Source: Anaerolineales bacterium (GTDB lineage: Bacteria > Chloroflexota > Anaerolineae > Anaerolineales > JABWBV01). Taken from it: a stretch of DNA of 64,000 nt. The stretch covers positions 1 through 64,000 of the forward strand of contig JACKAX010000002.1 of the NCBI GenBank assembly GCA_020634875.1. The letters are read 5' to 3'. Positions 15,621 through 30,295 of this stretch are shown here, piece after piece. Position numbers and translations under genes: made by a program. The number at the start of each line of letters is the position of its first letter. Positions within the stretch are counted from its first letter, which is position 1. The notes beneath the pieces are model-generated. The model was not told the DNA's origin and did not search any database. It saw only the letters and a program-made list of their open reading frames with translations.

Positions 15621-15639
15621 ATGAAATGACGACCCTATC

Positions 15640-16480
15640 TAACCCTTGATGGGCTACTTTCCCTCGCCCTCTCCGCCACTGGTCTCAGATCCCCATTCCA
15701 AATACAACACCGTCCCTTAAATTCCACTAATCCTTCCACAGATCGTTCGGCACGGCCGGTATATTCAACTCCGTCGTGGGGCTGAAAAGGCACATCCGCA
15801 GGCGAGGAGGCAGGTGGGGTCCGGGGTCGAAGAGGGTTTGTGCGGCTGATGTACACGCGTCGGGACGTCAGCACCGTTGTGAGGAGGGATGCCATCGGGG
15901 GTGAGATCGGCTGGGACGGGTTCGCACAGGGTGTGGTCAAAATGATCAGGGGCGGGGTTCGATGACGGGGTTCAACCGCTGTCCAGTGGATCAGATCGGT
16001 GCGTGGGCGGCCCAAATGTTGGGATCGCCGAAGTACATCAATATTTGCCCGTTGACGGGCGTGGTGAGGATCGCCCCGGACTTGATCAGCCTCGGTTGGG
16101 AAGACCAGGCCGTGTTTCTCCCAGGTGTGAAGGTCTTTGGATGTGGCGAGGCGAGGCGGGCGGTTTTGCCCATCGTAGGCAGTGTAGGTGGTGAAGGTGT
16201 CACCGATTTTGACGGCACGGGGTCTTCCACACCCGCCAGGGTTCAGGGTTCGGTGGGTTCGAGGACGGGGTGCGGCTACATGGGCGAAGTGGACGCCGTC
16301 CGTGCTGGTGGCGAGCCAAGGCGGAGAGTGCCATTCCACTGACCGGGGCCGGTGTGGTCTTCACGCGGTACAACTCAAATCGTCTCCCCGTCCGTCCACA
16401 CGGAGGTTGAAGATGTCTTCCTTCCCAGGTATCTGCTTACGAAACGGGATGGGATTGGCGGTGTTGATAAAGGGCCAGAG
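15640..16480 (-). pseudogene. GH130 beta-mannoside/glycoside phosphorylase, broken by many indels
   Basis: Fragments in several minus-strand frames add up to a GH130 protein: HSPPWLATSTDGVHF, PRAVKIGDTF, TTYTAYDGQ, TSKDLHTWEKHGLVFP, AILTTPVNGQILMYFGDP, NIWAAHA, DLIHWTAVEP and VEGLVEFKGR. GH130 enzymes cleave beta-mannosides or related disaccharides with phosphate in the cytoplasm. Around 16207-16226 one extra G and one missing C move the CEDPRAVKIG motif out of and back into frame. Downstream of Gfo/Idh/MocA and ThuA relatives in the same direction, so the original cluster was probably for sugar use. Whether the breaks are biological or sequence error is open. Confidence 0.7.
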
Positions 16481-16515
16481 ATTGCCAGGATTTGAACATG
16501 TGGTATCCGTGATTT

Positions 16516-16591
16516 TTAACGCAAAGTCGCAAAGAGCAAACGCGAAGGTTTTAAATTTCTTTGCGTCTTCGCAACAGCGACTTTGCGTTAA
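16516..16591. repeat. Palindromic repeat, TTAACGCAAAGTCGC family
   Basis: TTAACGCAAAGTCGC (16516-16530) and GCGACTTTGCGTTAA (16577-16591) are perfect inverted 15-mers. It lies between the GH130 and oxidoreductase remnants. A longer related element, with other repeats inside it, is at 43852-44142. Confidence 0.8.
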
Positions 16592-16599
16592 AGATTTTA

Positions 16600-27338: not shown

Positions 27339-27414
27339 GGTACGAGGTTTTCTGCATGTAGAGTGGAAACTCCTCGTTACCTTTCCATCCCTCGCACGAT
27401 ATACTTTTCAACAC

Positions 27415-27990
27415 ATGGAAACCTTCACCGAAGCCCTTCCCGCCCCGTCTTTTGCGGACGACGAACCTCTGCTCATCGAAGCCGCCCGACAAAACCCTGA
27501 AGCGTTCGACGCCCTGTACTGCCGGTATCTGAACCCGGTGTATCGTTATCTATTCAGCCGGGTGCAAAACCAGGCCGATGCCGAGGATTTGACCGCCCAG
27601 GTTTTCATCGAAGTCTTGGAAGGGTTGGCCCGGTATCGCGACCGGGGCACGTTCGCCGCGTGGCTGTTCACCATCGCCCGCCGCCGCGCCATTGACCATC
27701 CCGGCGCAAACGTCCGGTCGTCACCCTGGACGAAAATCACGAACACCCCGACAGACCTGATCCCTCACCCAACTTCTGGCAAACGAACGCCTTTGTCACC
27801 CGCCCAGACATCTGCAAACCCTCAAGATGATGACCGCGATTGCTCCGTCTCCGTTTCGCCATGAACTTACGCTTCCCCGAGGTGCCAACGTCCTCCACCG
27901 CCGCCTTGACAGCGTCAAAATGGCTCTCCATCGCCTGCTCCGCCGGATGAGGCCGCCGTGGAAAAAAAGAATAAGCATAGTACACAGAAG
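27415..27990 (+). pseudogene. ECF-type sigma-70 factor, frameshifted between regions 2 and 4
   Basis: ATG 27415 gives METFTEALPAPSFADDEPLL, then region 2: NPEAFDALYCRYLNPVYRYL, NQADAEDLTAQVFIEVLEGL, RDRGTFAAWLFTIARRRAID. After about 27715 the frame breaks; region 4 reappears in another frame as VLHRRLDSVKMALHRLLRRM, the helix-turn-helix end, followed by ENHEHPDRPDPSPNFW-type linker fragments between. As written, the product would lack the -35-binding region. The following gene is a membrane protein, a common anti-sigma arrangement. Confidence 0.8.
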
Positions 27991-28060
27991 ACACAGATTT
28001 CAACAGAAGGACACGAAGTAAAATTTCTGTTTTCTTCGTGTCTTCTGGCCTTCTGTACAA
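27978..28060. repeat. Palindromic repeat, ACACAGAAGACACAG family
   Basis: AGTACACAGAAG (from 27978) pairs with CTTCTGTAC (28050-28058) and the inner GACACGAAG with CTTCGTGTC. It spans the end of the sigma factor remnant and the gap to the next gene. Similar elements are at 42268 and 20945. Confidence 0.65.
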
Positions 28061-28073
28061 ATTAGATAAACCC

Positions 28074-30295
28074 ATGTCTCCCTCAGAACGACACTCGAAA
28101 CCACTCCACCAGCACCCGCGCCGGACCCCACGTTTCCGCACGCCTACTGGCACGACCTGCTACGCACTCGCGCCGAACGCCTCCGAAACCCCACGCCCGC
28201 CAGCCGCAAGCACCTTTCACCTGGGGCCTGTTTCGCCGCACATGGGCTGCAGTCGCGCTGACCTTCGTGCTGCTCGCCGCGGCTTTCATCCTTTGTAGGG
28301 GCCCGCAACGAGTGTGGGCGAGCATCCAAAATTTTGCGGTACGTGCGGGATGGGCTTTGTGGATTTGGAGAACGCCCGCGTCATCCCGCCCCAGTCGCCA
28401 TCGAGCGGGAAGGACATCACCTTCATCGTCACGCAAGTCCTCCCCTACCGACCGCACGATGGTTCGTTTTGAAGTCCAGGGCTCCTCCGCCGAGAAATCT
28501 GGGCTAATGGCGACGAACGCAACGATGATTTCATGTCCAAACTCCGCCTGTCCGATACACGACGTTCTACAGGATGATGCTCGGACTGGATAACGGACGG
28601 ATCAAATTCCCCGCCCTGCCGGATATTCCCTCGTCTATCTCGAATTCGACGACCTCCGCTTCACCCACCCGGCATGTTCCCCGAACGGTGGAGCATCCCC
28701 TCCACGCTCCAGCCCTCGAAGTGAACGGACAAAGCCCTTCCGAACCTTACACTCCGAAAGCGCGACAGATTCGCACTTTGGGATCACCCGCCACGGTGTT
28801 GCAAGTCCACAGGCCTCCGAAGGAACAGCCGTTGCAGCTCATGCCAGATCGGAATACCCTGCTTATGTTGGGATGTTAACTTAAGACGACATCGGACACA
28901 TCTATGGACAGTCGTATGAAGATAACGTCTCACCGTGGTGAAAATGGTGAGGTTCTACGAGAAATCCATCTTCCACCTCCCTGAAATGTCCACAGAAACT
29001 ACATTTTATCCCATTTCTCATCTCGCGAAAAACGGTTATTCCATCGAAATTTACAAAATTAACAAGTCTCACGCTCCAGGGTTCGTTTACGATAGACGTT
29101 GGCGAAAACCCTCAAGTCGGGATACTGGGCCTTGAACCTATCCCCTTTGGTTGCAGGATCAAAGCCACGATCTTATCGGCGCATCTCAGCCGAAGACACT
29201 TACCAAGATGAAACATCCCAAGATGGCTCTATCAAACGCTCAACAAATTCGAATTTGCGATCAATTGAGCCAACCCCGGATAGGCGCGAATCAGTTCGTT
29301 TTACTTGACAATGCCGATGGCTATTTCAAGGGCAGCTCAGGAAACCCCCAATACGCCGGATCAACCCGCGAAGTTATGTCGAGTTAGACGCTTCCCAACC
29401 CTTCCCGACCGGTCTAACCTTTATTTCGAAGAAAGCCTCCATCACCTACGCAGCCCGTGGATTCTAACTGGCCCATCCCCGCGAGGAAGATGAACCGGTT
29501 CAGCACCGCCCGTCATCCTCCACCCGACGCCCGACACAAACGATCTCCCCTCTCCATCTCGAAACCGTGACAAATCGATAGACTCCTTGCTCTGGCCCTT
29601 GATGTCAAAAGCCTCCAGCTGGAACAGAATTTCTCTGGCCGATCCTGGGGCACCGATTTCAACCAGAGCGGATGTCACACAGGCGACAACCTCTGGCAAT
29701 GCAGTACACTCTTCTAAGTGGGAAACAAGTTGGGCAGCTTACAGAACAACAATCTGCCTTCATCTCATCAGACTTTGCCCATAGCCCTCTCGCCAGTAAA
29801 TTGACTTCACCATCCCCGCCGTACATCTTTTCATGCACGCCGAAACCAGTTTTGACATTATCCTCCGCCTGATCAAACTCACTGCGAACCTATCGAGAAA
29901 ACTTGACATTATCCCCGGAAGAAGCCTGGGAAGTGGACATTCTCTCAAAGTACCGGGTTTCAAATCGACTTCACCCGCGTGGGTGCAAGAGGATGGTAGC
30001 TGGCAATCATAATCTTGTTTGCCGAAGATACATCAAGGAAGTTGGCTATTTCATCTCCTACGCTCAAAGGTGAAACCGTCAAGCCCCGACAGGCAAACCT
30101 GGAACGTTCTTCCTTTCCTGCGATGTTCGGTTCATGCTGGACAAATCCCGGACTTCTACCTACTTTGCCGATTTGAGAATCGCAACCTTCAACCCTGACA
30201 TCCTCCTCCCCGGCACCTATCACATTCAACTCAACGGCGTCATTGTCACCGCCCCCGGCCCGTGGAAGTTGGGATGGAATTTGATGGGGCCTTAG
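28074..30295 (+). pseudogene. Single-pass membrane protein after the ECF sigma factor (possible anti-sigma), broken by indels
   Basis: Starts MSPSERHSKP at 28074. Fragments in three frames give a cytoplasmic N-terminus, a membrane segment (WAAVALTFVLLAAAFIL, around 28245-28295), GYV-GMGFVDLENARVIPAPVA-type sequence, then repeated beta-rich segments: TIVTQVLPYRPH, FEVQGL, REIWANGD, LVYLEFDDLRFTHPA, FGITATVLQV. It ends ILLPGTYHIQLNGVIVTAPG and WNLMGP at 30295. The VDLENARVI-API pattern occurs in Anaerolineae proteins encoded beside ECF sigma factors and resembles DUF4179 proteins. An anti-sigma role is inferred from context only. Its stop overlaps the convergent methyltransferase end by 4 bases. 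Confidence 0.5.

What the first reader, a model, noticed from the sequence alone, without database searches (positions are those of the whole stretch)
15635..30295. A 14.7-kb block where nearly every gene is broken by one-base indels
Both flanks have intact genes up to sharp limits. Inside, ten recognisable genes change frame every 30-60 bases. Many changes sit in short homopolymers (for example the C-run and GG near 16207-16226, the A/C runs near 17320, the T-run at 22908). Correcting them gives family consensus with few substitutions. Old pseudogenes should also carry many substitutions and stops. DUF402, the first third of one peptidase and most of the regulator are clean, so error is patchy. 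This looks more like low-coverage unpolished sequence than decay, but recent mass inactivation is not excluded.
Basis: partly seen in the sequence, partly recalled or inferred. Interest (0 to 1): 0.7.

Follow-up and report, generated by a model that had tools for sequence, protein, structure and literature searches.

The report
Uncorrected long-read stretch in contig
A roughly 14.5-kb stretch of a bacterial contig looks full of broken genes, but the pattern is that of raw long-read sequencing error patched with clean pieces, so it is very probably an assembly artefact and not real gene decay.

Summary
A collinear relative (L001, Anaerolineales MAG_39) has intact orthologues of four block genes and an open, contig-truncated fifth (DUF402). 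Against it, three pooled broken stretches carry 312 indel events in 4781 aligned bases (65/kb); two clean stretches of the block plus the adjoining methyltransferase carry 15 in 2227 (6.7/kb). Mismatch rates are similar (15-16% against 12-17%). Simulated error on clean genes reproduces this at about 5-6% deletions, 2-2.5% insertions and 0-4% substitutions: long-read-like, nearest to nanopore. Deletion-type frameshifts outnumber insertion-type 102 to 20.

Error limits ignore gene limits: one M3 peptidase is nearly clean over its first 646 bases and broken after, and the sigma factor turns inside the gene. Ordinary decay should add several substitutions per indel. Against: homopolymer bias is weak (34 of 199 short deletions in runs of 4 or more, 11% expected), and fitted deletions exceed published nanopore values. 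Most likely raw long-read sequence joins accurate pieces in a hybrid or poorly polished assembly. Reads were not available, so platform and assembly step are inferred. Genes here should not be called pseudogenes.

The parts
15334..15528 (.). Tandem array, 83-base unit, 2.3 copies, just left of the block; 15381-15531 matches one place in the relative G001 at 82%
15638..16480 (-). Broken gene, GH130-like (beta-1,4-mannooligosaccharide phosphorylase family)
   Evidence: PF04041 E=1.3e-5, 24.8 bits against a cut-off of 26, on one piece; 17 frameshifts against distant homologue L017 at 39.5% identity
16554..17640 (-). Probably broken coding stretch, family not identified
   Evidence: HMM frame changes; no Pfam match for the piece 16554-17027; no homologue found among 45 loci fetched for two other families
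17809..18461 (-). Broken gene, ThuA-like; no frameshift call in its 5' part 18246-18461, 14 in the rest
   Evidence: alignment to L041, 62% identity; weak Pfam match PF06283 E=0.008 on one piece
18610..19233 (-). DUF402 gene, clean apart from one frameshift call near its 3' end
19233..20908 (-). M3 oligoendopeptidase copy a; 5' part 20263-20908 nearly clean (1 of 23 frameshift calls), 3' part broken (22 of 23)
20994..22650 (-). M3 oligoendopeptidase copy b; broken (38 frameshifts)
24356..24709 (-). Open frame, MarR-like regulator; not tested against an orthologue
   Evidence: PF12802 E=9.4e-7
24779..27016 (-). Probably a broken amino-acid-permease-like gene with C-terminal universal stress protein domain
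   Evidence: PF00582 E=1.1e-12 on the piece 24600-25091; only weak alignments to relatives at a lowered frameshift penalty, 30-33% identity
27415..27949 (+). ECF sigma factor; first 285 bases clean (2 indel events in 283), rest broken (13 in 243)
   Evidence: family from the L001 orthologue
28065..30292 (+). Anti-sigma-factor gene (name from the NCBI record of the orthologue; no Pfam match); 56 frameshifts
30292..31374 (-). Intact DNA methyltransferase with RAMA domain, the clean right flank
   Evidence: 0 frameshifts in 355 codons; 5 indel events in 1061 bases

Best explanation
The block is native sequence of this Anaerolineales-like genome, but much of it is written with raw or nearly raw long-read (most like nanopore) error. 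Most likely a hybrid or insufficiently polished assembly joined accurate pieces with one or very few uncorrected long reads: the flanks and the inner clean patches are the accurate pieces, the frameshifted stretches are the reads. Shown: error load, deletion bias, patchiness that ignores gene limits, collinearity with an intact relative. Inferred: the sequencing platform and the assembly step that left it uncorrected.
For: Collinear relative contig L001 / G001 C140 over window 18.7-34.9 kb, with M3a, M3b, sigma and anti-sigma intact there. Indels 61-70/kb in three broken stretches against 5-9/kb in two clean stretches of the block and the methyltransferase, at similar mismatch rates. Simulated error on clean genes reaches 60-71/kb at del 5-6%, ins 2-2.5%, sub 0-4%; conserved-site mismatches in the broken part of M3a (8 of 61, 13.1%) lie between simulations with 2% (12.7%) and 4% (20.0%) substitution, 9.2% at none. 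Deletion-type to insertion-type frameshifts 102:20 over four genes. Clean tracts inside the block are improbable under one uniform rate: M3a 5' part 7 events against 42.0 expected, DUF402 4 against 34.2, sigma 5' part 2 against 18.5. Nanopore profile in print: deletions, then mismatches, then insertions; 5.7% in all, about 2% more in fast mode (PMC8486125, passages). Mutation accumulation in one bacterium gave 779 substitutions to 106 indels, the reverse balance (PMC5833318, passages).
Against: No reads or depth seen. Homopolymer enrichment of short deletions is weak (34 of 199 in runs of 4 or more), while PMC8486125 ties more than half of deletion errors to homopolymers. Fitted deletions (5-6%) exceed its 1.6-2.7%. 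Insertions (82) show no run enrichment. Runs of 5 or more are rarer in the block (3.8/kb) than in the right flank (6.4) and L001:2789-10000 (8.5), but hardly rarer than in the left flank (4.9). Ka/Ks over the four broken genes (0.27-0.40, clean parts included) is above the methyltransferase (0.07) and DUF402 (0.14), which could be error or true relaxation. The clean limit inside the anti-sigma gene is only weakly supported (P=0.018).
Confidence: 0.92

Rival explanations
1. Recent real mass inactivation: the block lost selection and decayed by indels in this lineage.
For: Of five block genes with an L001 orthologue, four are heavily or partly broken; Ka/Ks is raised to 0.27-0.40 against 0.07-0.14; the relative is intact, so breakage would be recent.
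Against: Indels at about 65/kb with no matching excess of mismatches, the reverse of the mutational balance; clean and broken parts within single genes (M3a, sigma).
Confidence: 0.04
2. A sub-case of the best explanation: a low-coverage consensus of several long reads, in a region where polishing reads did not map, rather than a single-read bridge.
For: Also gives patchy error and sharp limits.
Against: A consensus of several reads is usually far more accurate than 7-12% error and its residue sits mainly in homopolymers (general knowledge, no call); here deletions are only mildly enriched in runs.
Confidence: 0.3
3. Pieces of a different strain or organism wrongly joined into the contig.
For: Sharp changes; repeats near both edges (tandem array at left; L001 has a second copy of the methyltransferase 3' end at right).
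Against: Gene order across 18.7-34.9 kb matches one relative contig; divergence from it is like that of the flank (12-17% mismatch). The left join (15.3-18.6 kb) has no such support.
Confidence: 0.03

Closest known systems
Raw nanopore read error (PMC8486125, passages seen)
   Same: Deletions commonest; total error of the same order; fairly even within a stretch
   Different: Fitted deletion share (5-6%) and total (about 7-12%) are above its values (deletions 1.6-2.7%, total 5.7%, about 2% more in fast mode); insertions here are well below deletions; homopolymer bias weaker here
Bacterial pseudogene blocks (general knowledge)
   Same: Many frameshifted genes beside intact ones
   Different: Matching substitution excess missing; changes of state inside genes; clean parts of genes that are broken elsewhere

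Membership tests
Uncorrected long-read sequence | Indel rate of several percent, far above flank | tested here: met
   65/kb against 6.7/kb, simulation fit
Uncorrected long-read sequence | Deletions outnumber insertions (nanopore) | tested here: met
   102 to 20 frameshift-type events over four genes
Uncorrected long-read sequence | Deletions concentrated in homopolymers | tested here: inconclusive
   34 of 199 in runs of 4 or more, expected 11.1%, p=0.007; effect small
Uncorrected long-read sequence | Limits independent of gene limits | tested here: met
   M3a and sigma change state inside the gene, ThuA too against a distant homologue; anti-sigma end weak
Uncorrected long-read sequence | Indels unsupported by other reads | not testable with these tools
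   No reads; window genome not held
Bacterial pseudogene block | Substitutions accumulate along with indels, in excess of them | tested here: not met
   Mismatch 15-16% broken, 12-17% clean; conserved-site mismatches fit about 0-4% extra substitution against about 7% indels
Bacterial pseudogene block | Same breaks in a second strain | tested here: inconclusive
   No conspecific seen: best DUF402 relative 92% (that database is clustered at 90%, so one could be hidden); the relative found has intact genes

The most novel reading that the evidence does not exclude
A real, very recent, local burst of short deletions in the living genome, hitting about 14 kb at several percent per base while sparing patches of a few hundred bases and adding few substitutions, by an unknown mutagenic process.
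Probability: 0.015. Interest if true: 0.8.

Novelty: not a real feature. Interest (0 to 1): 0.1.

Why it matters
Gene callers would file about ten ordinary genes here as pseudogenes or as many spurious short ORFs. The case gives a usable test for such blocks without reads: indel load against mismatch load relative to one collinear relative, and changes of state that fall inside genes.

Tried and rejected
Codon-usage HMM alone: weak contrast at low frameshift probability (9 block against 3 and 17 flank changes; that script then stopped on an index error before its controls), better at 0.02 (66 against 8 and 50). At dense indels it saturates (89-92 changes for 192-579 simulated indels, 62 for 97, 16 for none), so it is not used for rates. 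Homopolymer depletion: right direction but small against the left flank. DNA search of plasmids: one record, a CoA-transferase match. DNA search of G001 for 13.7-18.7 kb and 22.6-27.4 kb: only repeats and short matches. DUF402 in 61 genomes around G001: 2 matches, G001 itself and a weak one. Permease at the standard penalty: nothing over the score limit. Programmed frameshifting or recoding was considered and set aside without a test: too many events, both directions, unrelated genes.

Those are used. Further simulations moved the fitted rate from del 4-5% to del 5-6%.

Literature: five searches; two papers seen as passages; the others seen only as listings.

Full report
What was checked. The window (64 kb, mostly 50-60% G+C) carries long open genes on both sides of the block: CoA-transferase, SDR dehydrogenase and PLP-dependent decarboxylase on the left; RAMA methyltransferase, amidase, HlyD-like and MFS genes on the right. 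Inside 15.6-30.3 kb the open frames are short and overlapping. No tRNA gene was found and the genome of the window is not held.

A collinear relative. The clean DUF402 protein found one relative locus in the genome collection, L001 (JABWBV010000010.1, Anaerolineales bacterium MAG_39; 32 stretches matched a pattern, 1 was confirmed). L001 has the same order: DUF402, two M3 peptidases, sigma factor, anti-sigma gene, methyltransferase. All are open there, DUF402 being cut off by the contig end. Further along the same contig lie matches to the amidase and HlyD-like genes; the MFS match is on another contig. From 18.7 kb rightwards the block is therefore native to this locus. Its left part (15.6-18.6 kb) and 22.6-27.4 kb gave only repeats and short matches in that genome, so nativeness of those stretches is assumed. 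The window species itself was not seen elsewhere: among 6 DUF402 relatives at E<=1e-60 the best is 92% identical, and P0015, the closest to the window of the M3 peptidases I aligned, is 92.1% identical over the clean part (the search listed the best 120 of 4943 hits). That database is clustered at 90% identity, so a conspecific could be hidden.

Counts. I wrote a frame-aware protein-to-DNA alignment. Against L001 orthologues: anti-sigma 56 frameshifts, M3b 38, M3a 23, sigma 5, DUF402 1, methyltransferase 0; deletion-type 46, 30, 21, 5, 1, 0 and insertion-type 10, 8, 2, 0, 0, 0. The 102:20 ratio is over the first four genes. Flank genes amidase, HlyD-like and MFS gave 0 frameshifts in 492, 418 and 393 codons. 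Nucleotide alignment gave indel events per kb: M3a broken part 61.3, M3b 61.3, anti-sigma 70.1, sigma (mixed) 30.4, M3a clean part 9.3, DUF402 7.6, methyltransferase 4.7; mismatches 16.2, 16.4, 15.2, 11.6, 17.0, 12.2 and 13.6%. The pooled 312 in 4781 against 15 in 2227 leaves out the mixed sigma gene. Flank alignments to other loci of G001 gave 11.7 (amidase), 3.5 (HlyD-like), 14.1 (MFS, 26% mismatch) and 3.9 (methyltransferase) per kb; the frame-aware alignments of the first three show no frame loss, so part of any such count is alignment noise or whole-codon change.

Calibration. Adding random error to two clean orthologue pairs, 0% error reads as 6.5 events/kb. The observed 61-70/kb is reached at del 5-6%, ins 2-2.5%, sub 0-4% (60-71/kb). 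Mismatch moves little with 2-4% added substitution, so the substitution rate is only bounded. At sites at least 97% conserved in 121 M3 proteins the broken part of M3a differs at 8 of 61 (13.1%) away from indels; simulation gives 9.2% at no, 12.7% at 2%, 20.0% at 4% added substitution. Indels thus equal or exceed substitutions. In mutation accumulation in Teredinibacter turnerae 779 substitutions stood against 106 indels (PMC5833318, passages). Nanopore reads show deletions first, then mismatches, then insertions, 5.7% in all and about 2% more in fast mode (PMC8486125, passages); the fitted rates here are higher than those, as older or poorer reads would give (inference).

Patchiness. Per-100-base indel density moves between near 0 and 5-13. 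By recount: M3a 5' part 7 events in 643 bases against 61 in 1008 for the rest; sigma 5' part 2 in 283 against 13 in 243; DUF402 4 in 524; methyltransferase 5 in 1061; anti-sigma end 3 in 141 against 148 in 2013; M3b 3' end 5 in 140 against 94 in 1476. Under the pooled broken rate the first three clean tracts have P of 3e-11, 2e-6 and 9e-11 (M3a, sigma, DUF402), the anti-sigma end 0.018, the M3b end 0.11. These tracts were picked after seeing the data, so the P values overstate. The turns inside M3a and sigma are firm; the one inside the anti-sigma gene is weak, so the right limit could also coincide with the gene end.

Against the reading. Homopolymer bias is small (34 of 199) and run depletion against the left flank is slight. 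Ka/Ks is raised in the broken genes, as both error and relaxed selection predict. Identity to P0015 is 83.6% in the broken and 92.1% in the clean part of M3a, although the broken part is the better conserved one among relatives (80-83% against 70-76% in six of eight pairs; 64-65% against 54% in the two pairs with P0018). So amino-acid change is present there; the simulation accounts for it by misreading around indels plus a few percent substitution.

Mechanism proposed. Accurate pieces (flanks and clean patches of roughly 200-650 bases) joined by uncorrected long-read sequence. The left edge follows a tandem array (15334-15528) with a 151-base match in G001. At the right edge L001 carries a second, roughly 150-base copy of the methyltransferase 3' end and a DUF2306 gene that the window lacks at this place. 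Short-read assemblies tend to break at repeats (general knowledge). Platform and assembler are inferred.

Verdict.

Noticed in passing
32082-32133: Stretch of about 45 bases inside the intact amidase ORF accounts for 26 of the 42 listed matches of 30300-36200 in the relative G001, at 84-100% identity: a dispersed repeat apparently carried in frame. An idealised palindrome of it was not found in the window at up to 3 mismatches.
   Followed up: partly
15334-15528: Tandem array with 83-base unit (sub-units about 41), 93% matches; part of it matches one place in G001 at 82%.
   Followed up: partly
30292-30453; L001:1560-2637: L001 has a second copy of the methyltransferase 3' end and a DUF2306 gene between anti-sigma gene and methyltransferase; the window has neither there. 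Real difference or assembly collapse at the block's right edge.
   Followed up: partly
19233-22650: Two adjacent M3 oligoendopeptidase genes, also side by side in L001; window copy a matches L001 copy b at 66% DNA identity over 1.4 kb.
   Followed up: no
1723-6762 and 48045-52916: Two very long ORFs (1679 and 1623 aa): DUF11/PKD/endonuclease-phosphatase-like, and lamin-tail/Ig-like with RTX-type calcium-binding repeats.
   Followed up: no
16513-16598: Likely dispersed intergenic repeat with an inverted-repeat look: 7 matches on 6 contigs of G001 at 72-87% identity.
   Followed up: no
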